Below, in pieces: positions 8,201 through 61,109 of a stretch of DNA of 64,000 nucleotides. Below the pieces are notes generated by a model that searched no databases, was not told the DNA's origin, and saw only the letters and a list, made by a program, of their open reading frames with translations. How positions within the stretch are numbered: position 1 is the first letter of the stretch; each line of letters opens with the position of its first letter. Origin of the DNA: Corynebacterium occultum (GTDB lineage Bacteria > Actinomycetota > Actinomycetes > Mycobacteriales > Mycobacteriaceae); NCBI RefSeq assembly GCF_009734425.1, contig NZ_CP046455.1:2170001-2234000 (forward strand), in the 5' to 3' direction. The position numbers were made by a program, and so were the translations under genes.

Positions 8201-9121
8201 TCAGCCCAGCAGGAAGGAGATGAGCACCAGTACCGGCACGCAGGCCAGGGTGGACACCAGTCCGGCGTCCCGGGCGAGGTTCTCGGCGGTGCGGAAACGC
8301 AGAGCATAGGCATTGACATTCTGGGCGGTGGGCAACGCGGCGAGCACCACGGCGGTCAGCAGGGCGTGTCCTTGCATACCGAAGATGTAGTGCGCCATCA
8401 GGCCGGCGATGATCGGCATGAGAACCACCTTGAAGAGGGAGGCCAGGATGGCGTCGCGGGCACCTTCCCGCAGCACCGGTGCACCGGCCAGGGACATGCC
8501 GAAAACCAGCAGAGCCAGCGGGACGGAGGCCCCGGCGAGGATGCCCACCGGTTCGGAGATCAGCTGCGGTACGGGGATCTCAAGGAAGGCGAAGAACATG
8601 CCGATGATCGCAGCGATGACCATGGGGTTGGTCAATGGGGCCTGAATCAGGTTGCGCAGCAGGTTCGACTGCTGGGAGGAGTTGACCGCATCCAGGATGG
8701 TCAGGGTGATCGGGGCGTAGAAGGCCACCTGGAAGAGGATGACGGGGACCACTGCGGCGGCATCATCAATCACATAGACCGCCAGTGGGATACCGAGATT
8801 TCCGGCATTGGCGTAGGAGGCCGCCAGCATGCCGATCAGGCTGTCCGCGGTGTTGCGCTGCAGCAGGGTGCGGCAGAGCAGGAAGAAGAGGAATCCGGCG
8901 AGCAATGCGGAGGCCACGATCACCACGAAGTTCGCGGAAAATATTTCGGCGGGGTCGGTGACTATCAGTCGATCGAAGAGCAGGGCCGGGGTGGCCACCA
9001 GGTACACCAGGGAGGCCAGCGCCTGGCGTCCACCGGCGCCGAGGCTGTTGCGCCGCCCGAGCACATATCCGACGAAGACGACGAGGAACACGACCGCGAA
9101 ACCCATGAGTACCTGTTGCAC
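8201..9121 (-). CDS. AEC-family transporter (auxin efflux carrier / malate permease type)
   Basis: This 306-residue protein has about ten hydrophobic segments in two halves of five, the layout of the AEC family. 'ASYANAGNLGIPLAVYV' in the middle of the first half is the family's conserved Asn-Gly-Pro crossing. Bacterial members export or import small organic anions. The start is the GTG at 9121; an ATG 15 bases in (9106) follows an AGG and is an alternative. It is divergent from a GntR regulator at 9240, which may control it. The substrate is not evident. Confidence 0.85.
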   Translation of the reverse strand: MQQVLMGFAVVFLVVFVGYVLGRRNSLGAGGRQALASLVYLVATPALLFDRLIVTDPAEIFSANFVVIVASALLAGFLFFLLCRTLLQRNTADSLIGMLAASYANAGNLGIPLAVYVIDDAAAVVPVILFQVAFYAPITLTILDAVNSSQQSNLLRNLIQAPLTNPMVIAAIIGMFFAFLEIPVPQLISEPVGILAGASVPLALLVFGMSLAGAPVLREGARDAILASLFKVVLMPIIAGLMAHYIFGMQGHALLTAVVLAALPTAQNVNAYALRFRTAENLARDAGLVSTLACVPVLVLISFLLG

Positions 9122-9239
9122 GAAAGGCTATTCTTCCATGACTTCCCCGGCGCGGTACCGGGGCCCGCTTTGTGACGCCCGGGTGGGTCCGGCCCAGGAA
9201 ATCCAGGCCCGGGTCTTTGTTGATGTGGGATACTGGGGC

Positions 9240-9959
9240 ATGGCGGAAACACCGAAGCCGTTACCGAGGCCGACGCTGACGGAACAGGTCATGGACTATG
9301 TTCGCGGGGCGGTCGCCTCCGGTGAGATCGTGGCCGGGGCGTGGTACAGCGTGCAGCAGCTCAGCGAGGTGCTGGGCATTTCCAGGAGCCCGGTCCGGGA
9401 CGGTCTGCTGCGGCTGGAGGAGTCGGGGTTGATTCAGTTCACCGCGAACCGTGGTTTCCAGATCGTGTCCAGTTCCCCGGAGGATATCGCCGAGATCTAT
9501 GCTCTGCGGCTCGGTATTGAGGTCCCGGCTGCCCGGCGGGCCGCCCGGCAACGCAATGTCGCCGATCTGGGGGAGATCGACCACCTGGTGGAGCTGATGT
9601 CCCAGGCGGCGGATATCGGCGAGGCGGAGGAATTCTTCCGCCACGAAAGGGCCCTGCATGATCTGATCCTGCGGCTGGGTCACAGTGAGAGGGGTGCCCG
9701 GCTGGTGGCGCAGCTTCGTCCCCACACCCGGCTGATCGGCCGGGAGGTGATCACTCCCCGGCGTTCACTGCACCATGTCCTCCAGGAGTTCGACGCCCTC
9801 CTGGTGGCTCTGCGGGAACAGGATCAGGTGGCAGCAGGTGAGGCGATGCGCAACCACCTCTGCAGCACCGGGATGGAACTGCTGCAGCAGGCGGTGGAGT
9901 TAAACGGTGGCCAGGCCCAGCCGAGGCAGATCTGGAAGACCTACACCAGCGGGCTGTGA
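9240..9959 (+). CDS. GntR-family regulator, FadR/FCD subgroup
   Basis: The 239-residue protein has an N-terminal winged helix ('LSEVLGISRSPVRDGLLRLEESGLIQ', about residues 37-65) and a C-terminal all-helical FCD ligand domain with the metal-binding type Asp/His residues, including 'FFRHERALHDLILRLGHS'. Such proteins sense organic acids. The frame is open far upstream, but only the ATG at 9240 gives a normal GntR N terminus; GATACT stands 5 bases before it, so the mRNA may be leaderless. It is divergent from the AEC transporter (118 bp between the starts), so control of that transporter is the simplest reading. Its stop is 8 bp from the end of the dehydrogenase gene on the other strand. Confidence 0.88.
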   Translation: MAETPKPLPRPTLTEQVMDYVRGAVASGEIVAGAWYSVQQLSEVLGISRSPVRDGLLRLEESGLIQFTANRGFQIVSSSPEDIAEIYALRLGIEVPAARRAARQRNVADLGEIDHLVELMSQAADIGEAEEFFRHERALHDLILRLGHSERGARLVAQLRPHTRLIGREVITPRRSLHHVLQEFDALLVALREQDQVAAGEAMRNHLCSTGMELLQQAVELNGGQAQPRQIWKTYTSGL

Positions 9960-9967
9960 GCTCCGGT

Positions 9968-10951
9968 TCAGATCCGCACCAGGGTGCGCAGTCCCTCGTG
10001 GGGGTGGGTGAATTCCTCGGCCAGCTGATCCAGGCTGATGGGACCACTGAGGATCTCGTCCCAGGGCAGTTCTGCTTCGGTGAGGAAATCCACCGCCTGC
10101 TGCAGGTGGCGGGGTTCATAGTTGTGGACCCCGGTGACGCTGCGCCAGCCCCGCACCAGCCATTCCGGGTTGATGTCGATGTCACCGCCCGGTGCCACGC
10201 TGCCGGCCAGCACGGCGGTGCCGCCGATGCCGAGGGATTCCACACAGCTGCGGACTCCGGCGGTGACCCCGGAGTATTCCAGCGCAATATCCATCTCAGT
10301 GTCCCCGTTCCAGATATGTGCTCCGAGTTGCTCAGCCAGTGCGGCACGCTCAGGTGCCGGGTCGAAGGCATGTACCTCGGCGGCTCCCCTTTTCAAGGCG
10401 GCGGCCACGGCACTCAACCCCAGCATCCCCAGCCCATTGACCAGGATTTTTCTTCCTGCAATGTCCCCGGCGGCATCCAGGGTGGCCATTACGGTGGCCA
10501 CGGAACAGCCGGCGATGGCGGCAACCTCATCCGGGACCTGTGTCGGGACCGGTACCACGGTCACCCCGGCCGGCAGCAGGATATGGGAGGCGTAGGTGCC
10601 TGAGAGCGGCCACTGGCCTTCGTAGGATTCATGTCCGACCTTGGTGACCTGGGTGCATTTGGCGCTCAGTCCACGACGGCAGTGGTCGCAGGTCCCGCAG
10701 ATCGAGGTCACGCTGAACACCACCCGCTCCCCTGCCCCGGGCCCGGCCACGATCTTTCCGACGCCCTCATGACCGAGGATGGAGGGGCAGGCACCACCGC
10801 GGCGCCCGGTGACGGTGTGCCGGTCGGAGCCGCAGACCGCGGCCATGTGCATCTCCACCAGTCGTTGCCCGGCCATGAGCTCCGGGGTTGCCACCTCGAC
10901 CGTCTCAAAGGTGTTGCCACCGGTCCACACCTGTGCCTTGATCCGGGACAA
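9968..10951 (-). CDS. Phosphonate-associated zinc alcohol dehydrogenase
   Basis: This 327-residue medium-chain dehydrogenase has a GroES-like zinc domain with 'AAVCGSDRHT' and 'SILGHEGVGKI' for the catalytic zinc, a Cys cluster 'CGTCDHCRRGLSAKC' for the structural zinc, and a Rossmann domain starting at 'ILVNGLGMLGLSAV'. It matches the dehydrogenase group that recurs in aminoethylphosphonate clusters. It is the last gene of the block, one base after the HAD gene. The likely substrate is the aldehyde or alcohol left after C-P cleavage, such as acetaldehyde; this is inferred from the operon. Confidence 0.85.
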   Translation of the reverse strand: MSRIKAQVWTGGNTFETVEVATPELMAGQRLVEMHMAAVCGSDRHTVTGRRGGACPSILGHEGVGKIVAGPGAGERVVFSVTSICGTCDHCRRGLSAKCTQVTKVGHESYEGQWPLSGTYASHILLPAGVTVVPVPTQVPDEVAAIAGCSVATVMATLDAAGDIAGRKILVNGLGMLGLSAVAAALKRGAAEVHAFDPAPERAALAEQLGAHIWNGDTEMDIALEYSGVTAGVRSCVESLGIGGTAVLAGSVAPGGDIDINPEWLVRGWRSVTGVHNYEPRHLQQAVDFLTEAELPWDEILSGPISLDQLAEEFTHPHEGLRTLVRI

Positions 10952-10952
10952 G

Positions 10953-11630
10953 CTAGTTCTCCTGCTTCTTCAGTTCCTGCGGCAGGACCGCCACCGAGTC
11001 CACCACCAGGTGGGCACCCTCGGCCTGGAAATCCTCCCGGGTCAGGTGACCGGTGAGCACACCCACCGAGGTGACCCCGGCTTTGAGTGCGGATTGCACA
11101 TCGGCGGAGGTGTCGCCGACGCTGATGACCTTGGTTGGGTCGCTGACCCCGACATCCGCCATGACAAGCTGGATCAGGTCGGGTTCCGGGCGGCCCTGCG
11201 CCACCTCATCGCCGGCGCGGGAGGCATCGATGGTCTCCCCGATCTGCCAGCCCATCTTCGTCAGGATCAGGTCGGTGATTTCCCGGGAGAAACCGGTGGT
11301 CAGGCCGACCTTCATGCCCTCGGCGCGGAAGGTTTCCAGGGCCTGCTCAATACCCGGGAGCGGCTGCGGGGGGTTCTCGGTGTAGGTGCGGTGCAGTTCC
11401 TCCCGGAACCAGGCCCAGGCGTTGTCGTGGATCTCAGGGGTGGCTTCCACCCCACCGATCTCCAGGAGTTTGCCGATGGCGTAGTACTTTTCGGTGCCCA
11501 TGAACTGCTGGAACTGCTCATCGGTGTACTTCGCCCCTTCCCGCTCGGTGGCCTCGCGCAGAACGCGGTAGACCTCGTCACGGTCGTTGATGGTGGTGCC
11601 TGCCATATCGAAGACGGCGAGTTCAAACAT
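10953..11630 (-). CDS. Phosphonatase-like HAD hydrolase
   Basis: This 225-residue HAD-superfamily enzyme starts with 'FDMAGTT', where Asp8 is the nucleophile. The cap holds 'MGTEK' at residues 44-48, so Lys48 falls where phosphonoacetaldehyde hydrolase (PhnX) carries the Schiff-base lysine in MG-x-x-K; the His that follows in PhnX is not kept. Motif III/IV is 'SVGDTSADV'. It most likely splits the C-P bond of phosphonoacetaldehyde or a close analogue, giving phosphate and an aldehyde. It is shorter than PhnX (about 265-270 residues). It sits between the PhnE gene and the dehydrogenase on the same strand. The Lys alignment was made by eye. Confidence 0.82.
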   Translation of the reverse strand: MFELAVFDMAGTTINDRDEVYRVLREATEREGAKYTDEQFQQFMGTEKYYAIGKLLEIGGVEATPEIHDNAWAWFREELHRTYTENPPQPLPGIEQALETFRAEGMKVGLTTGFSREITDLILTKMGWQIGETIDASRAGDEVAQGRPEPDLIQLVMADVGVSDPTKVISVGDTSADVQSALKAGVTSVGVLTGHLTREDFQAEGAHLVVDSVAVLPQELKKQEN

Positions 11631-11696
11631 GTTTTTCTCCTTGGGGAATGAGGGGGGTTGTGCGGTGTCTCGGGGACACCGGCTTCAGGGGAGGTG

Positions 11697-13372
11697 TCAG
11701 CGGACGACGCGGCGCAGCCACATGGACAGGCCTTCGACGATCAGGACCACGGCGACCATGAGGATCAGGACCATGGTGACCACATCAAATTGATTGATCC
11801 GGGAGGCGTTGAGCAGTAGGAAACCGATGCCACCGGCACCGACGACACCGAGCAGGGTGGCGGAACGGATATTGGTGTCAAGCAGGTACATGGTGTGGGC
11901 GACCATGGCGGGAGCGGCCTGGCGGATGGTGGCGGCGAAGAACACCTGCATCTCACTTGCGCCGGCGGCACGCATGGATTCCTGAACCTTGGTGTCGGTC
12001 TCCTCCAGGGAGTCGGCGATGAGCTTGGACAGCAGTCCAACCGCACCGACGGACAACGCCAGGGTGCCGGCCACACCGCCGAGACCGGAGATCACCACGA
12101 AGATGATCGCCAGAATAAGTTCCGGGATGCCCCGGACGACGACGATGATCATGCGGGAGGTCTGGTAGACGTATTTATTGGCGGCCACATTGCGGGCGGC
12201 CAGGATACCGATCGGGATGGCGATGACACCACCGATCAGGGTGGCTGCCAGGGAGATCTGCAGGGTGACCAGCAGCTGTTCCAGCATATTGGGCAGGGAA
12301 CCACCGGTGGAGGGCGGGAAGAACAGTGCCAGGGTGTCCGGGATCTCCAGCAGACCATTCCAGAGATCGCTCAGGGAGAGGTTGACCCGCCAGGTGGCGG
12401 CCACCGCCAGGACAATGATCAGGGCGAAGGAGAGGAATTTCCGGAACCGATCCATGCTCCACGGCGGGGTGAGTTTGAGGTCATTGACCCCCGGCTCACG
12501 TCCCTGGTTGAACATGCGGTCCACCCAGGTGCCGCCGCTGATCCCGGTGCCGGTGCTACGCATCAGTGCCGCCCGGATGGCACCTGAGATCAGCTCAATG
12601 ATGATGCAGAGCGCCAGCACGATCAGCGCCAGCGCCATACCCCGCTGGTAGTCCATGACCCGGAGGGAGCTGGCGATGGCCAGGCCGATACCGCCGACCC
12701 CGACATATCCCAGCAGCACCGAGGTACGCAGGTTGATGTCGAAACGGTGCAGCGCGGTGGCGATGATCTGCGGCATCAGCTGCTGCGGGATGGCACTGAG
12801 GATCTGTTGTCCACGGCTGGCGCCGGCGGATGCGAGGGACTCCCGAGGGCCGTCGTCAAGTTCTTCGATGGCATCGGCGTAGAGCTTGGCCACCATGCCG
12901 ACGGAGTGGATGCCCATGGCGACGATGCCGGCGGTCGCGCCCAGGCCGAACATGCGGAGAAAGATGATGGCCAGCACCAGATCCGGGATCGCCCGGCAGA
13001 GCACGGTCAGCGCGCGAGCCACCCACTGTGCCCCCTTGCCGGAAGTGGTGGTGCTGGCGGCGAAGAGTGCGGTGGGGACCGAGAGGATCACCGAGAGCAG
13101 GGTGGCCAGGAAGACGATGGCCAGGGTCTCCGCCACCAGGGAGATGCCCTCCATCAGGGGCGGGAAGTCCAGGGGGAACATTGCCCCGAGGAAATTCACG
13201 GCATTGTCGAAGGAATTGACGATGGTGTTGATATTGATGCCCAGCGAGTTGATGGACCAGACACCACCGAGGATCAGTGTCAGCATCACCACCGTGGCGG
13301 CGATGCCTCCGCTCGAGGGCCTCGGCCGGACCGGAAGCTGTGGCCCCGCGGGAAGCTGCTGCAGGGTGCTCA

Positions 13373-13373
<1 letters not shown>
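11697..13373 (-). CDS. phnE: Phosphonate ABC permease, PhnE-PhnE fusion
   Basis: The 558-residue protein holds two complete BPD-type permease domains in one chain, about residues 1-285 and 300-558. Each has its own EAA loop, seen as 'ESLASAGASRGQQIL' in the first half and 'ESMRAAGASEMQVFF' in the second, each followed by a 'GVGGIG' or 'GAGGIG' run. Most bacteria encode two separate PhnE copies; here one gene would make both halves of the channel. Its ATG overlaps the phnC stop by one base (TGATG at 13371-13375). It works with PhnC and PhnD to import phosphonates. Confidence 0.92.
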
Positions 13374-14239
<866 letters not shown>

Positions 14240-14248
14240 CGTGTTTTC

Positions 14249-15187
14249 CTAACTGACGTTCTTGCAGGCTTCAGCCTGGGTGATTTCGCAGACCTCACGG
14301 ATGGCGTCGAAGTCGGAGTCATCGACCGGCAGGAAACCGTACTGGATCTCCTCCGGCAGGGTGCACTCCTCCTCGGAAGCACAGATGCCGGCCTCGACCA
14401 GGGCCGGGATGTTCCCCTTCTCCTCGAGGATGTTGATGATCTGATCGGCAAGTTCCGGCTCCAGGGAACCGTGGTTGACACTGATCGGGTCTTCAGTGAT
14501 CGGATCAGACTCCCAGACGGCGACCAGGGAGCCCGGCTCCACCTGACCGGACTGCTCCAGGGTGTTGAGCATGGTGTCGTGGGCGAAGGCGATATCGCAG
14601 TTCTCGGAGGAGAGGGACAGCAGGGAGGCGTCATGGCCACCTGCCAGGATCTGCTGGATGTCGGTGTCCATGTCGATGCCCACATCCATCAATCCCTTGG
14701 AGGGGATGAGGAAACCGGAGGTGGAGGCGGCGTCAACGAAGCAGACGGTCTTGTCCTTGGCATCCTCCAGGCCCTTGATCTCGGAGCCCTCACGAACATA
14801 GGCCAGCGAGGTGTAGGCCGGGGCCTGTGCCGGATCATCTGTCGGGGAGACGACGGCTTCCATGTCGATGCCGGAGTCCTTGCCGATGACATAGGCGAAG
14901 GGCCCGAAGGAGGCGATATCGATCTGGCCGGCACGCATGCCCTCAATGACGGCGGCGTAGTCCGAGGCGTTCTGGAAGACGACTTCCCGGCCGGTTTCCT
15001 GGGCGATCAAGGTGGTGATGTTCTCGAAGGACGACTCCAGGGTGGCGGCGGATTCGGAGGGAACCGCTGCGAAGGTGATGGGGTCCTCTTCCGGGGAGGA
15101 ACCGCAGGCCACCAGAAAAGGGATGGTCATGGCGGCGACAGCGGCAACTCGGCTGGCACGGGAATTGAGGATCGGGGAGAGCTTCAT
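14249..15187 (-). CDS. phnD: Phosphonate-binding lipoprotein PhnD
   Basis: The 312-residue protein has a lipoprotein signal with lipobox 'LVAC' (Cys28) and the PhnD fold, with 'AAVPSESAATLESSFENIT', 'VFQNASDYAAVIEGMRAGQIDIASFGP' split over the two lobes and the polyanion-binding loop 'DAASTSGFLIPS'. It should catch phosphonates outside the membrane and pass them to PhnE. It is the first gene of the phnDCE part, with a long 5' region (15188-15430) that holds a perfect 16-bp palindrome. An AAAGG stands some 15 bases before the ATG. Confidence 0.92.
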   Translation of the reverse strand: MKLSPILNSRASRVAAVAAMTIPFLVACGSSPEEDPITFAAVPSESAATLESSFENITTLIAQETGREVVFQNASDYAAVIEGMRAGQIDIASFGPFAYVIGKDSGIDMEAVVSPTDDPAQAPAYTSLAYVREGSEIKGLEDAKDKTVCFVDAASTSGFLIPSKGLMDVGIDMDTDIQQILAGGHDASLLSLSSENCDIAFAHDTMLNTLEQSGQVEPGSLVAVWESDPITEDPISVNHGSLEPELADQIINILEEKGNIPALVEAGICASEEECTLPEEIQYGFLPVDDSDFDAIREVCEITQAEACKNVS

Positions 15188-15362
15188 GGAGGCAGAGCCT
15201 TTCAGGTCCTAGAGGAAAGCAGGGGGATGAGCGCAGGCGGGGAGGTGGCGGAAGGAATATTGCGAGGAACTTCGGCGGGCAATCCAGTCATGGCGGCCCA
15301 GGGGGGGGCTCTGCCAGGTGACACGCTGTCTCACTGGATTCGATTGTGAACCATCCCAGCCA

Positions 15363-15378
15363 AGTTGTCTAGACAACT
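15363..15378. promoter_or_regulatory. GntR/HutC-type operator upstream of phnD
   Basis: This is a perfect 16-bp palindrome, AGTTGTC-TAGACAACT, whose core GTCTAGAC fits the HutC-type GntR consensus GT-M-T-A-K-AC. It lies about 175 bp upstream of phnD and 52 bp past the FAD oxidase stop. Its half-site resembles that of the element at 16582, so both are probably bound by the GntR protein at 16775. Confidence 0.75.
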
Positions 15379-15430
15379 CTGAAGAGTTCACTTAGTGGTA
15401 ACTGAGGTTTATCTTCCGGTTGGCATTGGC

Positions 15431-16546
15431 CTAGAACTGGACACTTTCGCCATCCAGAATTAAGCGGGCGATCCCGAAGGAAAGGGTCATCCCGATGCCG
15501 GAAGTCACCACCGCGATAGTCGTCTTTTCATCAGGACGCTCCAGAACCAGGTTCGTGCTGACGCTGTCCGCATACCTGCCGAGCCAGCGCTGCTTGACCA
15601 CCGGACGTTCAATGCCCAGCAGTGAGGTGGCCCGATCCAGCAGCAGCTGGGCAACCCCCTCATCAATGAAGGGTTCCGGTGAATGGGCATAGGCATGGGA
15701 ATCGCCGATCAGAAGCCCTTCCGGAATATCGGTGACCATGAGATTGGCGACACAGCCAACCAACTCCGGCTCACGCTCCGCAAGTTCCGCCCGCAGCGCA
15801 GGCGCACCGGGCAGGGCCGTAAACCCGTCATAGCGGGTGAGAGAGGTTCCACTGAGCATCGCTAGCCCATCGGGAATCCGAGCGGGCTTTTCAATCAGGG
15901 ACATGGCCAGCGTGCAGACCCGGACCCCACGGTCTTCAGCGAGCTCCGGAAAGAGTCCGCCCAGCTCATAACCGGGGCACACCACTACCTCGGCTGCATG
16001 AAATTCCCCACGGTTGGTGACGACCACCCCATCCTCCACTGCGGTGACCTGTGTTTTCCAGCGAAACTCCACTCCCCTACCCTCCAGCCAGGCAGCTAGT
16101 TTCGGAGCAGCCTCCCGCGGATTGACCCGCATATCACGGGGCAACCAGGCTCCGCCGAGGGCCGGGAGCCCAGGGTTTCCCAGGGCCCGGCCCACCTCCT
16201 CCCCCGAGAGGAGCTGAACCTGCCCACCACCACGATGTTCGGCAAACTCGCGGAGCACCTGCAACTCCGCCTCGGTCACGGCCGGGATGTAGGTACCGGT
16301 TTCCGCAGCCCAGATACCGGTTGCAGCGGCAGCCTGCAGCCAGCCCTCGCGGGCCATCTCAGCCACCGGCTGGATGATGTCGGCCTGGCCGGTGAAGCAG
16401 GCATGGCCGAAGTTCTGGATGGAGGAGCCGACGGGATGGTCGGAACGGTCGATGATGCAGACGGTGCGCCCCTGCTGATGGGCGAGGAAGGCGGTGGCCA
16501 GTCCGAGAATTCCGGAACCGACGATGATGAGATCTCTATTTTCCAT
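15431..16546 (-). CDS. FAD-dependent amine oxidoreductase of phosphonate clusters (TIGR03364 type)
   Basis: This is a DAO-fold flavoenzyme of about 371 residues. The FAD-binding 'DLIIVGSGILGLATAFLA' starts at residue 4 from the chosen ATG (16546), matching the family; two ATGs further up (16558, 16555) lack this fit, and a GGGAAA precedes 16546. 'GSSIQNFGHACF' and the C-terminal 'VVTSGIGMTLSFGIA' agree with the subgroup that co-occurs with AEP genes, some members of which oxidise AEP or N-methylated AEP. It would turn the amino phosphonate into phosphonoacetaldehyde, replacing the transaminase PhnW, which is absent. It is the first gene on this strand after the divergent GntR gene. Confidence 0.82.
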   Translation of the reverse strand: MENRDLIIVGSGILGLATAFLAHQQGRTVCIIDRSDHPVGSSIQNFGHACFTGQADIIQPVAEMAREGWLQAAAATGIWAAETGTYIPAVTEAELQVLREFAEHRGGGQVQLLSGEEVGRALGNPGLPALGGAWLPRDMRVNPREAAPKLAAWLEGRGVEFRWKTQVTAVEDGVVVTNRGEFHAAEVVVCPGYELGGLFPELAEDRGVRVCTLAMSLIEKPARIPDGLAMLSGTSLTRYDGFTALPGAPALRAELAEREPELVGCVANLMVTDIPEGLLIGDSHAYAHSPEPFIDEGVAQLLLDRATSLLGIERPVVKQRWLGRYADSVSTNLVLERPDEKTTIAVVTSGIGMTLSFGIARLILDGESVQF

Positions 16547-16581
16547 GTTTCCCATCATGATGCTTCGCCATCCGCTAAGCT

Positions 16582-16599
16582 AACTTGTATGTACAAGTT
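16582..16599. promoter_or_regulatory. GntR/HutC-type operator between the FAD oxidase and the regulator
   Basis: The 18-bp element AACTTGTA-TG-TACAAGTT pairs in eight of nine positions. The core GTATGTAC differs at one base from the HutC consensus. It lies 35 bp upstream of the chosen FAD oxidase start and 175 bp before the GntR start, so binding there would control the oxidase operon and possibly the regulator's own gene. The rest of 16547-16774 shows no coding signal. Confidence 0.72.
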
Positions 16600-16774
16600 T
16601 CTCATCTGTTCATCCAAGCTTCAGGACGACTTAAAGTTTCCCCTGAAAAATAAAGCCGGAAAACGGGCGGACATGCCAAGCCAGACACATTTCTCCTCCT
16701 CTCCTATCAGGGTCAGACACTAGGAAACCACCTGACAACCACGACATCACCGCAATCCCTGAAGGCCCTCCCCC

Positions 16775-17542
16775 ATGACGAACAGTTCAAGCGTGCAGCA
16801 GCACGAACATATCGCGCACTATCTGCGCTCCGCCATTAAAGAAGGCACCTTCAGCACCGGGGATCCGCTTCCCACCGAAGCCGAACTCAGCCGCAGATTC
16901 GAAACCTCCCGCGGCCCGGTCCGCCAGGCCATGTCCACGCTCCGCGCCGAAGGGTTGATCTCCTCCGGCCGTGGCCGTCGCTCCGTGGTGCTGGACAAGG
17001 TGTCCACCCAATCCTTCGATGATGTGATCTCCTTTTCCCAGTGGTGCCGCAAATCCGGCATTCAGCCTGGACAGAAAACTCAGTGGGTCGCCCGGCGCAA
17101 GGCGGAAGCTGCGCTGGCCGCCCAGCTGGAGATCTCCGACTGCGACCCGGTGGTCTCGGTCTACCGGCTCCGCCTCATGGACGGGGCACCTGCGATGGTG
17201 GAACGCCTGAATTACCCCTTGTCGGTGGGGCGTCATGTCCTGGCCTTCGACACCGATGCCGGTTCGATCTACCAGGAGCTGATCGATAACGGGGTGGACA
17301 TCAACCACGCCACCCGCACCATCGACGCGGTCGGCGCCGACCAGGAAGACGCCGACCTCCTGGAGGTACCGGTCGGCACTCCCCTGCTACGGGTCCGCCG
17401 CCGGGCCTTCACACTGGAGGGCACCCCGGTGGAATATTCCGATGACCGTTATCTTCCCTGGAAAGCGAGCTTCACCATGAACTCCACCAGGGAGCATCCC
17501 AATGCCCTCTCCATGGTCTCGGATGCCAGCTACGTGAACTGA
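16775..17542 (+). CDS. GntR-family regulator with UTRA domain, likely phosphonate-sensing
   Basis: This 255-residue protein has a GntR winged helix at about residues 10-75 ('GDPLPTEAELSRRFETSRGPV') and a UTRA ligand domain after about residue 90, with the usual 'RVRRRAFTLEGTPVEYSDDRYL' end. This is the HutC/PhnF subfamily. It is divergent from the FAD oxidase-phn block, and two HutC-type palindromes lie in that block (15363, 16582). It most likely represses it until a phosphonate or its metabolite binds. The ligand is not known. It could also act on the peptide-type ABC genes that follow on the same strand. Confidence 0.88.
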   Translation: MTNSSSVQQHEHIAHYLRSAIKEGTFSTGDPLPTEAELSRRFETSRGPVRQAMSTLRAEGLISSGRGRRSVVLDKVSTQSFDDVISFSQWCRKSGIQPGQKTQWVARRKAEAALAAQLEISDCDPVVSVYRLRLMDGAPAMVERLNYPLSVGRHVLAFDTDAGSIYQELIDNGVDINHATRTIDAVGADQEDADLLEVPVGTPLLRVRRRAFTLEGTPVEYSDDRYLPWKASFTMNSTREHPNALSMVSDASYVN

Positions 17543-17620: not shown

Positions 17621-19144
17621 ATGAGCAGAACTGTCCGCCGGTGGGGTGGCCGCGTCGTGGCGGTCCTCAGCGCTATCACGCTGACCGCCTGCAACGCCGG
17701 TTCCACCGCGACATCCATAGGCCGGATCAGCGGGCCGGAAACCATTGTCGTCGGCACCACCGCCGCCCCGGCTTCGCTGGATTTCACCACCACCGGGGGC
17801 GCCGCCATTCCGCAGGCATTGATGTCCAATGTCTATGAGGGTCTGGTCCACATCGACGCGGACGGGGAGATCATCCCGCAGCTGGCCACCTCCTGGGAGG
17901 TTTCGGCGGATGGCCGGGAATACACCTTCCAGCTGCGGGAAGAAGTGACCTTCTCCAATGGGGATCCCTTCAACGCGGACAGCGCGAAGTTCTCCATCGA
18001 TCACGTCCAGAGCGGGTGGAGCAATGGCCTGGCCGCCCAGATGGACGTGGTCGCTGACACTGAAGTCCTGGATGAATTCACGCTGCAGGTCACCCTGTCT
18101 GAACCCAGCAATAACTGGCTCTGGTCCATGGGCACCCTGATCGGGGCGATGATGACCCCGAGCGGCATCGACACCCTGGCCACCGACCCGATCGGCACCG
18201 GCCCGTACACCGTGGTGCAGTGGGCGGTCGCGGAATCCATCACCTTCCAGGCCAACCCGGACTACTGGGGGGATCCCCCGGCCTCTGACACTGCGGCGAT
18301 CCGCTACTTCGCGGATGCCACCGCCACCACCAACGCCCTCCAATCCGGGGACGTGGATCTGGTGTGGGCCATGCCCGCCCCAGAGTTGTTGGACAACCTG
18401 CCTGAGCAATACCGCGTCGAGGTGGGCACCACCAATGGTGAACTGTTGTTGAGCATGAACAATAATGTGGCCCCCTTTGATGATCCGCGGGTCCGACAGG
18501 CCGTGATGTACGGGGTGGACCGCCAGGCGATCATCGACCTGGTCTATGAGGGCTATGGCACCGACACCGGTGGCGCCCCGGTGCCACCCACCGATCCCTG
18601 GTTCGAGGGCACCGACTTCTACCCCTTTGACCCGGAGAGGGCCCGTCAGCTGCTGGCTGAGGCAGGGATCGATGAAAGCAACAACCAGGTCACCATCTCG
18701 GTGCCCACCCTCCCCTATGCCGAGGCCACTGCGGAGGTGCTCTACTCCCAGTTGCGTGACATCGGATTTGAGGTGCGGCTGAAGTCCACTGAATTCCCGG
18801 CGGTCTGGCTGGCGGAGGTGATGGGTGACCAGAATTATCAGATGTCCCTGATCGCACATGTGGAGGCCCGGGACATCCCGGTGCTCTTCGGCAATCCCGA
18901 CTACTACCTCGGTTTCGATTCCGCCGAGGTACGCGAAGAACTCGCCCTGGCGGCCAGCGGTCCACTCTCCGACCAGGAGGCGCATATGCATGCCGCCGTC
19001 GCCGGGATCATGGCGCAGGCCGGCGCCGGCACCTTGCTCAATGTCCCCAATATCGTGCTCAGTTCCCCGGGGATTTCCGGGGTGCAGGCCGATGTGGTCA
19101 CCGATGCCCTGCCTCTGGCCGGGATCTCCAAGGCGGAGGACTAG
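17621..19144 (+). CDS. Peptide/nickel-type ABC substrate-binding lipoprotein
   Basis: The 507-residue protein is an SBP_bac_5 family receptor with a lipoprotein signal ('LTAC', Cys24). It shows 'LMSNVYEGLVHIDADGEI', 'GRFYTFQL'-like 'GREYTFQLREEVTFSNGDPF' and 'RQAVMYGVDRQAI', landmarks of the DppA/NikA family. It begins the four-gene importer. TAGCCT stands 6 bases before the ATG with no Shine-Dalgarno, so the mRNA is probably leaderless. The cargo (peptide, nickel, opine or sugar) cannot be told. Its place beside the phosphonate regulator is suggestive only. Confidence 0.88.
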   Translation: MSRTVRRWGGRVVAVLSAITLTACNAGSTATSIGRISGPETIVVGTTAAPASLDFTTTGGAAIPQALMSNVYEGLVHIDADGEIIPQLATSWEVSADGREYTFQLREEVTFSNGDPFNADSAKFSIDHVQSGWSNGLAAQMDVVADTEVLDEFTLQVTLSEPSNNWLWSMGTLIGAMMTPSGIDTLATDPIGTGPYTVVQWAVAESITFQANPDYWGDPPASDTAAIRYFADATATTNALQSGDVDLVWAMPAPELLDNLPEQYRVEVGTTNGELLLSMNNNVAPFDDPRVRQAVMYGVDRQAIIDLVYEGYGTDTGGAPVPPTDPWFEGTDFYPFDPERARQLLAEAGIDESNNQVTISVPTLPYAEATAEVLYSQLRDIGFEVRLKSTEFPAVWLAEVMGDQNYQMSLIAHVEARDIPVLFGNPDYYLGFDSAEVREELALAASGPLSDQEAHMHAAVAGIMAQAGAGTLLNVPNIVLSSPGISGVQADVVTDALPLAGISKAED

Positions 19145-20113
19145 ATGCAGCTGATCTTTCGTCACCTGGCCAGATTCCTGATCACCCTCTTCATCGCCAG
19201 CATCCTCATCTTCGGGCTGATGCGCGCCATCCCGGGGGATCCCGCCCAGATCGCGCTCGGGGTCAACGCCACCCCTGAGGCGGTGGCCGCACTCTCCACC
19301 CAGCTGGGCACCGACCAGCCACTGATCCAGCAGTACTTCTCCTGGATCAGTGGACTGCTGCGCGGTGAATTCGGTATCTCACTGAGCAGCCGGGCCGATA
19401 TCTCCCCCCTCGTGGTGGATCGGGCCCAGGTCAGCCTCATCCTCTGCGGCACCGCCATGACACTCTCCCTGCTGATCGCCGTGCCGCTGGGGGTCTGGGC
19501 AGCCAGGCGGGCCCGGCGGGCAGATGGTCTGCTGATCACCGCCGGCAGCCAGATCGGCATCGCCATCCCCAGTTTCCTGGCGGGTGTGCTGCTGGTGGCG
19601 GTGTTCGCGGTGCAGCTGGGCTGGTTGCCGGCCAATGGTTGGGTGCCGCCGGCGGTGGATTTCGGGGAGTTCCTGCGTCGCCTGATCCTGCCGGTGGTCT
19701 CCTTGACGGCGGTGCAGGCGGCTATCCTGACCCGTTATGTCCGCTCCGCGATTCTTGAGGTGATGAATGAGGATTATCTGCGCACCGCCCGGTCCAAGGG
19801 GATGTCGTTGACCCAGGCGCTGCGGGTCCACGGATTGCGGAATGCGGCCCTACCGGTACTGACTGTCACCGGTCTGCAGTTGACCAGCCTGATCGTGGGT
19901 GCGGTGGTGATCGAGCAGGTCTTCGCGCTGCCGGGCCTGGGGTCGATGCTGCTGGATGCGGTGGGTAACCGGGATCTGATCGCGGTCCAGACCATTGTGA
20001 TGCTGCTGGTGTTGTTCACCCTGACGGTCAACCTGATCATCGACCTGAGTTATTCACTCCTGGATCCCCGGATCAGTGCCACCTCGGAAACCCGACGGAG
20101 GGCAGATCGATGA
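19145..20113 (+). CDS. ABC permease, DppB type
   Basis: The 322-residue protein has six membrane segments and the DppB/OppB marks: an N-terminal segment ending in 'RAIPGDPAQ', then an EAA loop 'DYLRTARSKGMSLTQAL', and 'GLGSMLLDAV' before the last segments. It starts directly after the stop of the binding protein (no gap) and overlaps the next permease by 4 bp, so it is translated as part of one operon. It forms one half of the channel. Confidence 0.9.
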   Translation: MQLIFRHLARFLITLFIASILIFGLMRAIPGDPAQIALGVNATPEAVAALSTQLGTDQPLIQQYFSWISGLLRGEFGISLSSRADISPLVVDRAQVSLILCGTAMTLSLLIAVPLGVWAARRARRADGLLITAGSQIGIAIPSFLAGVLLVAVFAVQLGWLPANGWVPPAVDFGEFLRRLILPVVSLTAVQAAILTRYVRSAILEVMNEDYLRTARSKGMSLTQALRVHGLRNAALPVLTVTGLQLTSLIVGAVVIEQVFALPGLGSMLLDAVGNRDLIAVQTIVMLLVLFTLTVNLIIDLSYSLLDPRISATSETRRRADR

Positions 20114-20934
20114 GTGTGCTGCGCAGACTTCCCTGGACCGGGTGGATCGGCCTGAGCCTGGTGTCCCTGGTGGTGTTGGCCGCCCTGCTCTCCCTGGTCT
20201 GGACCCCGCATGATCCGGTGCAGGTGGTGCCCACGCAGCGCCTGGCTGACCCCTCTGCGGAGCATCTCCTGGGCACGGACCGTTTCGGGCGGGATGTGTT
20301 CTCCCAGATTCTGGCCGGTAGCCAGATCACCCTGCTGGTGGGTCTGGTCGCGGTGGGTATCTCCGCTCTGGTGGGTACCCCACTGGGAATCTGGGCGGGG
20401 ATGCGTCGCGGGTGGGTGGAGACCCTGGTGATGCGGGGGTCGGACCTGTTGCTGGCCTTCCCTGCCCTGCTGCTGGCGATTGTCGCGGGAGCGGTGTTCG
20501 GGGCGTCAACCGTGACGGCGATGGTGGCCATCGGTATCGCCGGCATCCCGGCTTTTGCCCGGGTGTCGCGTTCCGGGACGTTGCAGGTGATGACGCGGGA
20601 TTTCATCGCGGCATCGCAAAGCGCGGGACGTCCGGCAGTGGAGATCGCCCGTCGACATGTGCTGCCCAATATTGTCGGCATGCTTATCGTGCAGGCTTCG
20701 GTGGCTTTTGCCCTGGCCATCCTGGCGGAGGCGGCGCTGAGTTTCCTGGGGCTGGGCACTCCCCCACCGGAACCCTCCTGGGGCCGGATGTTGCAGACCG
20801 CCCAGGCCTCTCTCGGTTCGGCCCCGCAGCTGGCACTGTGGCCCGGGTTGGCGATCGCGGCCACCGTCCTCGGTTTCAATGTGCTTGGCGACGGCCTCCG
20901 TGACGCCCTCGACCCGAAGGAAAGGCGAGGTTGA
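20110..20934 (+). CDS. ABC permease, DppC type
   Basis: The 274-residue protein carries the DppC N-terminal region ending in 'HLLGTDRFGRDVFSQIL', five or six membrane segments and an EAA-like loop 'DFIAASQSAGRPAVEIARRH'. The C-terminal 'EAALSFLGLGTPPPEPSWG' is a strong family landmark. It overlaps DppB by 4 bp and its TGA shares one base with the ATG of the ATPase gene (TGATG at 20932-20936). Confidence 0.9.
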   Translation: MSVLRRLPWTGWIGLSLVSLVVLAALLSLVWTPHDPVQVVPTQRLADPSAEHLLGTDRFGRDVFSQILAGSQITLLVGLVAVGISALVGTPLGIWAGMRRGWVETLVMRGSDLLLAFPALLLAIVAGAVFGASTVTAMVAIGIAGIPAFARVSRSGTLQVMTRDFIAASQSAGRPAVEIARRHVLPNIVGMLIVQASVAFALAILAEAALSFLGLGTPPPEPSWGRMLQTAQASLGSAPQLALWPGLAIAATVLGFNVLGDGLRDALDPKERRG

Positions 20935-22400
20935 TGCTCAAGATCGAAGATCTGCATATCGCTGACCTGGTCCATGACCTCAACTTCGAGATCGGGAAGG
21001 GGGAAAGGGTCGGCCTGATCGGGGAATCCGGATCCGGTAAATCCCTGACCGCCCTGTCCATCATGGGGCTGCTGCCCCGGGAGCTGGCCGCCACCGGCCG
21101 GGTCGAGTTCCAGGGGCGTAATCTACTTCAGCTTAAGGATCGGCGGCTGCGCCAGATCCGGGGCGCGAAGATCGCGATGGTCTTCCAGGAACCGATGACC
21201 GCCCTGGATCCGCTGATGCGGGTGGGCCGGCAGGTGGCTGACATGATGCGGGTACATGGTGTTTCCCGGCACAACGCACAACAGCGCGCCCGGGAACTCT
21301 TCGCCGATGTGGGCCTCAAGGTGGAGAAAATGCGTTCCTTCCCGCACCAGCTCTCCGGTGGGCAACGCCAACGTGTGCTGATTGCCATGGCCCTGGCCAA
21401 TGATCCGGAGCTGCTGATCTGCGATGAGCCCACCACTGCCCTGGATGTGACGGTGCAGCGCCAGATTCTTGAGCTGATCTCCCGACTGGTGGAGCAGCGT
21501 GGCATCAGCCTGCTCTTCATCACCCATGATCTGGGGGTGATCAGCCAGATCTCGGAGAAAGTGGTGGTGCTCAAGGAGGGGCGGACGGTGGAATCCGGCC
21601 CCACCGCCCAGGTACTGGTGAAACCAGCCCATGAGTACACCGCTGCGCTGGTGGCCGCCTACCGGCCGGGGGAGAACTTTCCGGTGACTACCCCAGGGGA
21701 GCCGATCATCATCACCGAGGAATTGACCCGCTCCCACCGTGGTATCCCCGCCCTGGACCGGGTTTCCCTGACGGTCCGGCGCGGGGAAAGGCTGGGTGTG
21801 GTCGGTGGGTCCGGTTCGGGTAAAACCACCCTGATGAAATTGATCGCAGGTCTGGATCAGCCCACCTCCGGCACCGTGAGGGTCAAGGCCAGCACCCAGC
21901 TGGTCTTCCAGGATCCGATGTCCTCCCTGGATCCGAGGATGCGGATCTTCTCCTCCGTGGAGGAACCCCTGCTGAGCACCGAAATGACCAGGGCGGAACG
22001 TGCCGCCCGGGTCCGGGAAGTACTCACTGAGGTGGGTCTGCCACCAGATGCCGCCCAACGCTACCCCCACCAGTTCTCCGGTGGGCAGCGTCAACGGATC
22101 TCCATTGCCCGGGCCCTGGCACCCCGACCAGATGTGCTCTTGGCCGATGAGGCGGTCTCCGCCCTCGATGCCACCGTCCGGGCCCAGGTGTTGGCGCTGC
22201 TGGATCAGCTGGTGGAGGAATATGGTCTGACCCTGGTGTTCATCTCCCATGATCTTTCAGTGGTGCGTCAGGTCTGTTCCAGGGTGGTGGTGCTGAACCA
22301 GGGGCAAGTGGTGGAGGAAGGAGATATTGCCAGCGTGTGGGAGAACCCCCGGCATGAGTACACCCGGGCGCTGCTCACCGCCGTGCCGGCGCTGGATTAA
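20934..22400 (+). CDS. ABC ATPase with two fused domains (DppD-DppF type)
   Basis: The 488-residue protein has two complete nucleotide-binding domains: Walker A 'GESGSGKSL' with 'LSGGQRQR' and 'LLICDEPTTALD' in the first, and 'GGSGSGKTT' with 'FSGGQRQR' and 'VLLADEAVSALD' in the second. It would supply both ATPases of the importer. A TTG just before the ATG (20931) is also in frame, but the ATG at 20934 overlapping the TGA of the permease is preferred. Its last 26 bases overlap the end of a minus-strand gene. Confidence 0.9.
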   Translation: MLKIEDLHIADLVHDLNFEIGKGERVGLIGESGSGKSLTALSIMGLLPRELAATGRVEFQGRNLLQLKDRRLRQIRGAKIAMVFQEPMTALDPLMRVGRQVADMMRVHGVSRHNAQQRARELFADVGLKVEKMRSFPHQLSGGQRQRVLIAMALANDPELLICDEPTTALDVTVQRQILELISRLVEQRGISLLFITHDLGVISQISEKVVVLKEGRTVESGPTAQVLVKPAHEYTAALVAAYRPGENFPVTTPGEPIIITEELTRSHRGIPALDRVSLTVRRGERLGVVGGSGSGKTTLMKLIAGLDQPTSGTVRVKASTQLVFQDPMSSLDPRMRIFSSVEEPLLSTEMTRAERAARVREVLTEVGLPPDAAQRYPHQFSGGQRQRISIARALAPRPDVLLADEAVSALDATVRAQVLALLDQLVEEYGLTLVFISHDLSVVRQVCSRVVVLNQGQVVEEGDIASVWENPRHEYTRALLTAVPALD

Positions 22401-59385: not shown

Positions 59386-60663
59386 GTGGTTTCAAGGTCT
59401 TGGTCCATCATCTCCACCGGGCTGGCACTCAGCCTGACGCTGGGGGCAGGCCCCGCCCTGGCCCAGAGCACCGGTTCTGACGAAGGGTCTTCAGCGCCGC
59501 TCAGCTCGGGTAGTTCCCTGGGTTCCAGCAGCGGGCAGGATGATGGCGAAGGCTCCACCACCGGGTCCGCAGCGTCCTCCGATCAGGAGGATCTGGCGGA
59601 TCTGACCCGGGATCTGATCGACCTCTACTCCGGCAGTTCAGCCGCCAACTCAGGTAGTTCCCTGCGTGCTCTGACCAGCTCCCTGGAAGCCACCGGTTCC
59701 TCCCAGATCTCCCTGCCCGAATCGATGGTCATCATCGCTGGCGATTACCCCAAGCCACTGGATGAGTCGATCCAGACCCCGGAGCTGATCTCCCGCGTGC
59801 CGGAGGGGGATCGTCTGGAGCGTTGGACCATCGCCTCCCCCGCCATGGCCCGCAATGTCGAGGTGCAGGTGCTGCGTTCCGCGGACACCACCACCCCTGC
59901 CCCGATGCTTTATCTGCTTGATGGGGTGGACGCCGCCCGCGACTCCAACTGGTTGGATTCCGGCCGTGCGGGCAGCTTCTTCGAGAATGAGAACGTCACC
60001 CTGATCATGCCCACCGAGGCCCGGGCCTCCATGTACTCCGACTGGGTTTCCGATGATCCGAACCTGGGCCGCCACATGTGGGAAACCTTCCTCGCTGAGG
60101 AACTGCCACCCATCCTGGAGGCGGAACCGGAACTGAACTTCAACGGCAAGCGTGCCATCGGCGGCATCTCCATGGGTGCCACCGGTGCGGTGCACCTGGC
60201 TAACACCCGCCCCGAGCTCTACTCCGCGGTCTTCGGCCTCTCCGGCTGCTACTCCACCCTGGACTCCCTGGGCCGGCAGACCGCACAGCTGACCCTGGGC
60301 ACCCGCGGCGGGGACGTGGAGAACATGTGGGGCCCCTACGGTTCCGAGACCTGGGTGGAACATGATGTCACCGCCAACCCGGAGGGACTGCGCGACATGG
60401 CGGTCTACCTGGCATCCGCCAATGGCGAATATGACGATGTGGACCGCCACAACTACGGCAACACCGCACTGATCGACATGCCGCTGGGCATGATCCTGGA
60501 ACAGGGGTCGATGCTGTGCACCCAGGACCTGGATGAGGCCATGAAGAATCACGGGATGGAGCACCAGGTGGTGGAGTACTTCGACAGCGGTGTGCACGCC
60601 TGGCGTAATTTCCGGGCCCAGCTCACCCCGGCCTGGGACTCAGTGAAAGACGCCCTGTATTAG
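59386..60663 (+). CDS. Second secreted mycolyltransferase (antigen 85 family)
   Basis: The GTG at 59386 follows GGAGG by 7 bases and gives 425 residues with a signal peptide ending in 'AGPALAQ-S'. The Ser-rich linker is longer than in the first copy. Nucleophile Ser262 lies in 'GGISMGATGAV' and catalytic His404 in 'GVHAWRNF'. It is a paralogue of the gene before it; near the C terminus the two share a 98-base block with two differences. It probably acts on the same envelope lipids, with its own substrate range. Confidence 0.92.
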   Translation: MVSRSWSIISTGLALSLTLGAGPALAQSTGSDEGSSAPLSSGSSLGSSSGQDDGEGSTTGSAASSDQEDLADLTRDLIDLYSGSSAANSGSSLRALTSSLEATGSSQISLPESMVIIAGDYPKPLDESIQTPELISRVPEGDRLERWTIASPAMARNVEVQVLRSADTTTPAPMLYLLDGVDAARDSNWLDSGRAGSFFENENVTLIMPTEARASMYSDWVSDDPNLGRHMWETFLAEELPPILEAEPELNFNGKRAIGGISMGATGAVHLANTRPELYSAVFGLSGCYSTLDSLGRQTAQLTLGTRGGDVENMWGPYGSETWVEHDVTANPEGLRDMAVYLASANGEYDDVDRHNYGNTALIDMPLGMILEQGSMLCTQDLDEAMKNHGMEHQVVEYFDSGVHAWRNFRAQLTPAWDSVKDALY

Positions 60664-60689
60664 GGTGGATTAGGGCTCTGCGCCGCGGG

Positions 60690-61109
60690 TTATTCCTCTG
60701 ATTCCGCTGATTTTTCAGCAAGCCTGGCCAGTCGTTCCAGATCAGCGCGGACCGCCAGGCAATCAGCCTCGAAATCAGCATTGCTTGCACTCCCCTGCCG
60801 CACCGTGAAGATGATCTCGGTTCCGGCGGGGTGGACAACCAGCCGGAGCGGATTGTCCATGGTGGTGCCGTCTGGGAGGATCACACGATGATCGAGCACA
60901 CCGAGCTGGTTCCGCGGCAGAAACACCGTGCGTACCCGGCCCATCGGTGAGTCCAGCTCCACCGTATTTTCATCCATCACCTGCAGATTTCCCGCGGCCA
61001 AACCAGCGGCCCATTCGGGCAGCCGAAAGAGATCACGGGCGATGTCGTAGATCGTCTGCGGGAGGGCTTGAGCCACCACCGCGATATGCCGCGAATCAGA
61101 GATGATCAT
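60690..61109 (-). CDS. SRPBCC (START-like) domain protein
   Basis: The ATG at 61109 gives 139 residues. The sequence ('LPQTIYDIARDLFRLPEWAAGLAAGN', 'LDHRVILPDGTTMDNPLRLVVHPAGTEIIFTV') fits the SRPBCC fold used to bind hydrophobic ligands. TATTCT lies 7 bases before the ATG and no Shine-Dalgarno is seen, so the mRNA may be leaderless. The open frame upstream of the ATG is unlike a protein. The partner ligand is unknown. Confidence 0.65.
   Translation of the reverse strand: MIISDSRHIAVVAQALPQTIYDIARDLFRLPEWAAGLAAGNLQVMDENTVELDSPMGRVRTVFLPRNQLGVLDHRVILPDGTTMDNPLRLVVHPAGTEIIFTVRQGSASNADFEADCLAVRADLERLARLAEKSAESEE

What the first reader, a model, noticed from the sequence alone, without database searches (positions are those of the whole stretch)
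9968..17542. Compact phosphonate cluster that lacks the PhnW transaminase and seems to use a flavin oxidase instead
The block joins PhnD-PhnC-PhnE uptake with an FAD amine oxidase, a phosphonatase-like HAD enzyme and a zinc dehydrogenase, but no PhnW. Seen in sequence: gene order and all motifs. Known: flavoenzymes of this group co-occur with AEP genes and some oxidise AEP or N-methyl-AEP. Inference: a self-contained route to phosphonoacetaldehyde, phosphate and a C2 product without transaminase.
Basis: partly seen in the sequence, partly recalled or inferred. Interest (0 to 1): 0.7.

Follow-up and report, generated by a model that had tools for sequence, protein, structure and literature searches.

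The report
Transaminase-free phosphonate-degradation operon in Corynebacterium
A compact, widely shared set of genes that probably lets an actinobacterium pull phosphate out of natural aminophosphonates by oxidising them with a flavin enzyme instead of the usual transaminase; the principle is already published, but two of its enzymes look untested and may hide a second entry route.

Summary
In detail: 9968-17542 carries hpnZ, a phnX-like gene, fused phnE, phnC, phnD and hpnW (minus strand) and a divergent GntR regulator. No PhnW passes its cut-off in this genome or in 301 sampled genomes of the family; 140 of the 301 carry HpnW. HpnW is followed by canonical phnX in six proteobacterial records and accompanied by a PhnX-like gene in 72 of 80 mostly actinobacterial loci, so both hydrolases probably share a substrate. 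PhnX-like keeps the nucleophile Asp and Schiff-base Lys in 72 of 72 but never has PhnX's His56. A palindrome, ACTTGTNNNNACAAGT, lies between regulator and hpnW in 36 of 40 regions. Less expected: HpnZ goes with PhnX-like and usually with PhnDCE (28 of 29 loci), even in genomes without HpnW, so it may be a second entry enzyme (2-hydroxyethylphosphonate dehydrogenase) rather than acetaldehyde disposal. That is inference. Ordinary as a system; two enzymes worth assaying.

The parts
9968..10951 (-). hpnZ: zinc- and probably NAD-dependent alcohol dehydrogenase (TIGR03366)
   Evidence: 366.4 bits over cut-off 328.1; presumed catalytic (C40, H61, E62, C149) and structural (C85, C88, C91, C99) zinc ligands invariant in 28 of 28 aligned, the window included; their roles and the NAD preference (Asp after the second beta strand) are inferred from the fold family
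10953..11630 (-). PhnX-like HAD hydrolase: D8, A10, cap-domain K48 and D173 kept, His56 equivalent is Ala
11697..13373 (-). phnE, two permease domains fused in one protein
   Evidence: two TIGR01097 stretches
13373..14239 (-). phnC, ATPase of the importer
   Evidence: 287.2 bits over 266.1
14249..15187 (-). phnD-like binding protein; Asp at the AEP cap position (E. coli PhnD D205), no PtxB-type Tyr there
15363..15378 (.). second palindrome AGTTGTCTAGACAACT (two mismatches from the motif) upstream of phnD, possible second operator; by itself at chance level
15431..16558 (-). hpnW/pbfD: FAD-dependent aminophosphonate oxidase (TIGR03364)
   Evidence: 399 bits over 285.1; aligned with the A. baumannii member
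16583..16598 (.). inverted repeat ACTTGTATGTACAAGT between hpnW and gntR, probable operator
16775..17542 (+). GntR/UTRA transcriptional regulator, divergent from the operon

Best explanation
This is an aminophosphonate-scavenging operon of a Corynebacterium. PhnDCE imports the phosphonate. HpnW (PbfD/TIGR03364) oxidises 2-aminoethylphosphonate and/or its N-methyl form with O2 to an imine that hydrolyses to phosphonoacetaldehyde, ammonia or methylamine, and H2O2. The PhnX-like HAD enzyme forms a Schiff base through K48, attacks phosphorus with D8, and releases phosphate and acetaldehyde. The divergent GntR/UTRA protein represses the operon at ACTTGTNNNNACAAGT until a phosphonate binds it. HpnZ is an accessory zinc dehydrogenase that either removes the aldehyde product or, about as likely, feeds a second (alcohol) phosphonate into the same aldehyde. 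Shown here: genes, order, absence of PhnW, motif conservation, partner exchange, operator conservation. Inferred: substrates, reactions, repressor role.
For: Family assignments. No PhnW or AepZ-type transaminase over cut-off in the genome; control rings. PhnW 0 of 301 and HpnW 140 of 301 in the same family sample. HpnW and PhnX-like co-occur: 136 of 140 (lists copied by hand), and three of the four exceptions (G159, G225, G254) have a PhnX-like gene beside HpnW below that threshold. Partner exchange: canonical phnX follows HpnW in 6 of the 10 records I opened of 26 plasmid-collection hits; a phosphonatase-like gene takes its place in Tsukamurella and, by motif, HAD genes in Gloeocapsa and Hymenobacter. 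An annotated 2-AEP ABC transporter sits beside HpnW and PhnX-like in Tsukamurella, and a relative of its binding protein in 2 of 80 loci. PhnX-like: D8, A10, K48, R147, D173, D177 in 72 of 72. PhnD cap Asp 42 of 48, 16 of 16 in the close set; PMC5700983 ties this Asp to AEP binding. PbfD enzymes make phosphonoacetaldehyde (PMC10590968: abstract, first parts of Results and Discussion, kinetics section and section 20 read).
Against: PhnX-like lacks the His56 and mostly the Tyr128 of PhnX, so its activity on phosphonoacetaldehyde is unproven. HpnW is only 26-29% identical to the A. baumannii proteins, and I did not have the sequence of PbfD2, the AEP-active one. PhnD's best PDB matches are PtxB phosphite binders, and the second amine-contacting residue of E. 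coli PhnD (Glu177) is Thr here. 8 of 80 HpnW loci show no PhnX-like gene in the stretch held, and G163 has none in the 20 kb read. No structure could be predicted.
Confidence: 0.72

Rival explanations
1. The true substrate is a hydroxylated aminophosphonate (1-hydroxy-2-aminoethylphosphonate): HpnW makes hydroxyphosphonoacetaldehyde, PhnX-like releases glycolaldehyde and phosphate, and HpnZ reduces or oxidises glycolaldehyde.
For: The altered PhnX-like active site (no His56) could reflect an altered substrate; the TIGR03364 description quoted in PMC10590968 names hydroxy-AEP as a possible substrate.
Against: TIGR03364-type enzymes tested in PMC10590968 work on N-methyl-AEP and AEP. The same HpnW family is followed by canonical PhnX, a phosphonoacetaldehyde enzyme, in six records.
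Confidence: 0.1
2. HpnZ only disposes of the acetaldehyde made by PhnX-like, by reduction or oxidation, and has nothing to do with phosphonate entry. (This concerns HpnZ only; it is compatible with the main explanation.)
For: Acetaldehyde is a reactive product of the PbfD2-PhnX route (PMC10590968, section 20). In the family sample HpnZ genomes all have PhnX-like (59 of 59); HpnZ lies near PhnX-like in 55 and near HpnW in 41 of 59 (my reading of the tables); 15 of 18 HpnZ genomes of a class-wide sample also have HpnW.
Against: Only 59 of 301 genomes have HpnZ over cut-off against 144 with PhnX-like, so most PhnX-like genomes do without it; HpnZ follows the PhnDCE importer (28 of 29 loci with HpnZ have phnC and phnE, 20 of 51 without HpnZ), also in four cassettes with no PhnX-like gene in the 16 kb read.
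Confidence: 0.38
3. The operon serves mainly phosphite or another reduced phosphorus compound, with the enzymes doing something unrelated.
For: PhnD's best PDB matches are PtxB phosphite binders.
Against: The phosphite cap Tyr is replaced by the Asp of AEP binders (PMC5700983, passages), and the three enzymes are of phosphonate-linked families; none of the block's genes is a phosphite dehydrogenase.
Confidence: 0.05

Closest known systems
PbfD2-PhnX route of Mariniblastus fucicola (PMC10590968)
   Same: FAD oxidase of the PbfD group makes phosphonoacetaldehyde from N-methyl-AEP and AEP; phnW apparently absent from the genome; hydrolysis by a HAD enzyme
   Different: Here the hydrolase is PhnX-like without His56; a PhnDCE importer, HpnZ and a GntR regulator are in the same block
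hpnW-phnX operons of Achromobacter (PMC11203657, passages)
   Same: HpnW stands in the phosphonatase operon in place of PhnW
   Different: Those operons have PhnX with Asp, Lys and His, PhnSTU transport genes, LysR and PhnHD, and phnW lies elsewhere in the genome; HpnW activity was not assayed there, as far as the passages show
PhnW-PhnX pathway
   Same: Ends in Schiff-base hydrolysis of phosphonoacetaldehyde to acetaldehyde and phosphate
   Different: No transaminase; oxygen-dependent first step; different hydrolase subgroup
TIGR03364 / TIGR03351 / TIGR03366 families of NCBIfam
   Same: The three enzymes of this block match these three families (PhnX-like just under its cut-off)
   Different: No difference in content; in the papers searched no hit for TIGR03351 or TIGR03366 came up

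Membership tests
HpnW / PbfD (TIGR03364) | score over curated cut-off 285.1 | tested here: met
   399 bits
HpnW / PbfD (TIGR03364) | oxidation of N-methyl-AEP or AEP to phosphonoacetaldehyde | not testable with these tools
   needs enzyme assay; shown for other PbfD enzymes in PMC10590968
PhnX-like (TIGR03351) | score over curated cut-off 218.9 | tested here: not met
   210.7 bits; therefore called PhnX-like, not filed as a strict member
PhnX-like (TIGR03351) | DxAGT motif and cap lysine (features of the family recalled from its description) | tested here: met
   D8, A10, K48
Phosphonoacetaldehyde hydrolase PhnX (TIGR01422) | score over curated cut-off 220 | tested here: not met
   113.3 bits
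Phosphonoacetaldehyde hydrolase PhnX (TIGR01422) | catalytic Asp12, Lys53 and His56 (PMC11203657) | tested here: not met
   Asp and Lys kept; His56 equivalent is Ala here and A 60 / V 12 in 72 relatives; H in 7 of 7 canonical PhnX
HpnZ (TIGR03366) | score over curated cut-off 328.1 | tested here: met
   366.4 bits
PhnD, strict (TIGR03431) | score over curated cut-off 261.1 | tested here: not met
   167.3 bits; the wider TIGR01098 is met
PhnF regulator (TIGR02325) | score over curated cut-off 156.8 | tested here: not met
   97.3 bits; a GntR-UTRA protein only
PhnW-PhnX pathway | a PhnW transaminase in the genome | tested here: not met
   control

The most novel reading that the evidence does not exclude
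The operon has two entry doors to one C-P-cleaving enzyme: HpnW oxidises aminophosphonates and HpnZ oxidises a phosphonate alcohol, most likely 2-hydroxyethylphosphonate, to the same phosphonoacetaldehyde, which a His56-less phosphonatase subgroup then cleaves. HpnZ would be a catabolic 2-hydroxyethylphosphonate dehydrogenase, an activity I found in no paper searched. Basis: HpnZ tracks PhnX-like (near it in 55 of 59) more than HpnW (41 of 59), usually sits with PhnDCE, and occurs in cassettes of regulator, importer, PhnX-like and HpnZ in genomes without HpnW.
Probability: 0.35. Interest if true: 0.6.

Novelty: new member of a known kind. Interest (0 to 1): 0.4.

Why it matters
If right, the hydrolytic aminophosphonate route of this actinobacterial family is a transaminase-free, oxygen-dependent one: 140 of 301 sampled genomes have the oxidase and none a PhnW over cut-off, so surveys that count phnW or canonical phnX would miss it. 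Two enzyme families become directly testable: a phosphonatase subgroup without the catalytic histidine, and a dehydrogenase that may open 2-hydroxyethylphosphonate to hydrolytic degradation. [quoted passage not shown]

Tried and rejected
PhnE-HpnZ fusion: in G494 both families fall in one 1240-residue open frame, but the reading passes through withheld (N) stretches and an apparently out-of-frame part, so I do not count it as a fusion. The long open frame around HpnZ in L047 has no PhnE match in it.

Genome-wide operator count as evidence: at up to 1 mismatch the own genome has one site, but the reversed control pattern has two, so rarity alone proves nothing; likewise the second palindrome at 15363 is at chance level in the window (0.69 expected). 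The weight rests on position and conservation, with the caveat that the motif was chosen after looking at part of the same regions.

Cap-lysine control with the HMM alignment: in 64 of 143 PhnX-like rows the register slips and the lysine lands three columns on; I used the MAFFT alignments instead. The only clean non-phosphonatase control there is one own-genome HAD (L076: Asp, Asp, no Lys). The Fisher P values are not corrected for kinship and are not used as probabilities.

HpnZ cationic pocket: R51 and H107 are invariant in the HpnZ proteins aligned (28, 8) and look non-cationic in some PDB relatives, but Lys104 is matched in a threonine dehydrogenase; too weak to use.

Neighbours of two of the eight HpnW loci without PhnX-like (L107, L108): no replacement hydrolase among the proteins scanned. 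The other six were not scanned.

Promoter and terminator scan of the block: one promoter-like and two terminator-like sites, no more than in shuffles.
Full report
What is there. The block 9968-17542 holds, on the minus strand and in transcription order, hpnW (15431-16558), phnD (14249-15187), phnC (13373-14239), a double-length phnE (11697-13373), a phnX-like HAD gene (10953-11630) and hpnZ (9968-10951), with a GntR/UTRA gene reading away on the plus strand (16775-17542). The genus is Corynebacterium: a same-genus genome (G199, contig of 582,334 bases) matches the Corynebacterium pelargi record (L093) in contig length and place.

No transaminase. In the own genome (3.2 Mb, 99.88% complete) the PhnW model TIGR02326 reaches at most 27 bits (cut-off 400.8) and TIGR03301 at most 39.2 bits (cut-off 360.8). 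The four genes behind the TIGR02326 hits score best as SerC, SufS and two NifS/IscS-like proteins, the last two under their cut-offs. As a positive control the same model gives 586.4 bits in an A. baumannii record. Across 301 genomes of the same family PhnW passes E 1e-60, or its cut-off, in none (the 14 built-in controls do not ring either, hence); HpnW passes its cut-off in 140. C-P lyase (PhnJ) was not found in the own genome.

Prior art. PMC10590968 (abstract, first parts of Results and Discussion, kinetics section and section 20 read; other passages by search) shows that PbfD enzymes, of which the A. baumannii one is annotated TIGR03364, oxidise N-methyl-AEP to phosphonoacetaldehyde, and that PbfD2 of M. 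fucicola takes AEP only fourfold less efficiently and is proposed to stand in for PhnW. It also quotes the TIGR03364 description, which speaks of association with proposed phosphonatase-like enzymes, and says that PbfD homologues outside phnWX/phnWYA clusters occur in many Terrabacteria. PMC11203657 (passages seen) describes HpnW in place of PhnW in Achromobacter phosphonatase operons. In the library searched no paper holds TIGR03351 or TIGR03366, and the HpnZ hits are unrelated by title (listings only).

Partners of HpnW. Of the 80, 72 have a PhnX-like gene in the stretch and none a canonical PhnX as best match over 60 bits; eight have none (L098, L099, L107, L108, L111, L116, L143, L155; L155 is cut close to HpnW by the contig end). 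Fourteen of the 80 have the window's gene set and order, some cut by contig ends (read). Of 26 plasmid-collection hits I opened 10: canonical phnX follows HpnW in six (Asticcacaulis, Comamonas, Novosphingobium, Rhizobium tumorigenes, Pararhizobium, Bartonella); a phosphonatase-like gene lies next to the regulator in Tsukamurella; HAD genes of PhnX-like type lie near HpnW in Gloeocapsa and Hymenobacter (by motif); and PhnX (by sequence) and PhnW are near HpnW in A. baumannii. That the two hydrolases exchange as partner argues for one shared substrate, phosphonoacetaldehyde. In the family sample 136 of 140 HpnW genomes have PhnX-like at E 1e-45 and 8 genomes have PhnX-like without a full HpnW match; of the four HpnW-only genomes three have a PhnX-like gene beside HpnW below that threshold and G163 has none in 20 kb; of the eight, G193, G216 and G231 have partial HpnW matches.

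The hydrolase. In 72 PhnX-like proteins the nucleophile D8, A10 (the Asp+2 position), K48 (Schiff-base lysine), R147, D173, D177 and W128 are invariant. The position of PhnX His56 is Ala in 60 and Val in 12, never His, while 7 of 7 canonical PhnX have His; the Tyr128 position is Phe in 58 and Tyr in 14. A partly overlapping set of 39 gives V 22, A 17 and F 35, Y 4. PMC11203657 (passage seen) names Asp12, Lys53 and His56 as directly involved in catalysis. The chemistry is therefore probably that of a phosphonatase with a changed proton-transfer arrangement; activity is unproven. The window protein scores 8 bits below the TIGR03351 cut-off, so I do not file it as a strict member.

Transport. PhnD is nearest in the PDB to the phosphite binder PtxB, but its cap position carries the Asp that contacts the amine of AEP in E. 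coli PhnD (D205; my renumbering from the alignment), not the PtxB Tyr (PMC5700983, passages seen). The Asp is kept in 42 of 48 relatives and 16 of 16 close ones. The second contact, E177, is Thr here, and the third cap position is not conserved, so AEP binding is likely, not shown.

Regulation. An inverted repeat, ACTTGTATGTACAAGT (16583-16598), starts 25 bases upstream of hpnW. Of 40 regions with a divergent GntR gene (window plus 39 loci) 36 have ACTTGTNNNNACAAGT with at most two mismatches; 50 rounds of shuffling give a mean of 0.2 regions and at most 2. The four without it (L082, L091, L093, L135) include two Corynebacterium loci with the window's gene order. Many of these species are related, so independent events are fewer than 36. 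The window has a second palindrome at 15363-15378 before phnD; a site with at most two mismatches is found after hpnW in 8 of 29 loci examined, all 8 among the 13 with the window's gene order. In the own genome the motif at up to one mismatch occurs only here, but the reversed control occurs twice. I infer a local repressor.

HpnZ. In the family sample HpnZ passes its cut-off in 59 of 301 genomes, all with PhnX-like, three without HpnW (G022, G069, G297). Read by eye (with L035, L038, L045 and L171 where a place was not listed), 41 of the 59 HpnZ genes lie within about 10 kb of HpnW and 55 within about 10 kb of PhnX-like. The 18 away from HpnW split into 14 beside PhnX-like and 4 (G279, G173, G099, G271) with PhnDCE but no PhnX-like gene in 16 kb. 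I fetched 15 HpnZ loci away from HpnW: 11 have PhnDCE and 9 have PhnX-like; L169 and L171 have PhnX-like without PhnDCE, and L200 (G607) and L201 (second copy of G411) have neither in 18 kb, which counts against a fixed link. In G022 the cassette is GntR, PhnX-like, PhnD, PhnC, PhnE, HpnZ; of the seven ORFs scanned there (the regulator among them, one without a Pfam match) none is a transaminase, amine oxidase or lyase. In G297 it is a PhnF-like regulator (under cut-off), PhnX-like, an MFS transporter and HpnZ. In a class-wide sample of 345 genomes 18 have HpnZ, 15 of them with HpnW and three without (G022 and G069 again, and G494, 93% complete); G494 shows PhnX-like, PhnDCE and HpnZ together beside a PhnM-like gene. 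Among the 80 named HpnW loci, HpnZ accompanies phnC and phnE in 28 of 29 (the exception, L155, is a cut contig) against 20 of 51 loci without HpnZ; neither of the two AepS-type loci has HpnZ; in the unnamed loci L036 has HpnW, PhnX-like and HpnZ without PhnDCE. An enzyme that merely disposes of acetaldehyde would be expected wherever PhnX-like is; one that acts on an imported non-amine phosphonate fits the pattern better. 2-Hydroxyethylphosphonate oxidised to phosphonoacetaldehyde is my candidate. Against it: generic transaminases elsewhere could supply PhnX-like in the genomes without HpnW, most HpnZ genes are near HpnW, and the substrate of a zinc dehydrogenase cannot be read from sequence. 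PMC12366243 (passages seen) tested another enzyme, PbfF, for this activity and excluded it.

Horizontal movement. The best matches to the window's HpnW, 69-74% identical, are in Brevibacterium, Citricoccus and Rhodococcus; other Corynebacterium proteins are 55-66% identical, and only 7 of 30 sampled genomes of the genus, the own included, have it over cut-off, so the cassette has probably moved between actinobacterial lineages; no tree was built.

Verdict. What deserves bench work is the His56-less hydrolase and HpnZ.

Noticed in passing
   Followed up: partly
window 17621-22400: An Opp/Nik-type ABC importer (binding protein, two permeases, double ATPase) starts about 80 bases after the GntR gene on the same strand; no relative of its binding protein over 80 bits was found in the 40 loci.
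   Followed up: partly
L098, L099, L107, L108, L111, L116, L143: HpnW genes with no PhnX-like gene in the stretch held; in L107 and L108 the neighbours scanned are unrelated (DNA ligase, ThrE-like exporter, methyltransferase).
   Followed up: partly
L202, L203, L204, L205: PhnD-PhnC-PhnE-HpnZ cassettes without a PhnX-like gene in 16 kb, in genomes whose PhnX-like gene lies elsewhere.
   Followed up: partly
window 60001-64000: GC content falls to 0.58 and 0.54 against about 0.61-0.66 in the rest of the window, a possible island.
   Followed up: no
window 8829-9959 and 8201-9121: A GntR-FCD regulator converges on hpnZ, and a membrane transport protein (PF03547) is divergent from it; no relatives of either were seen over threshold in the 40 loci.
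   Followed up: no
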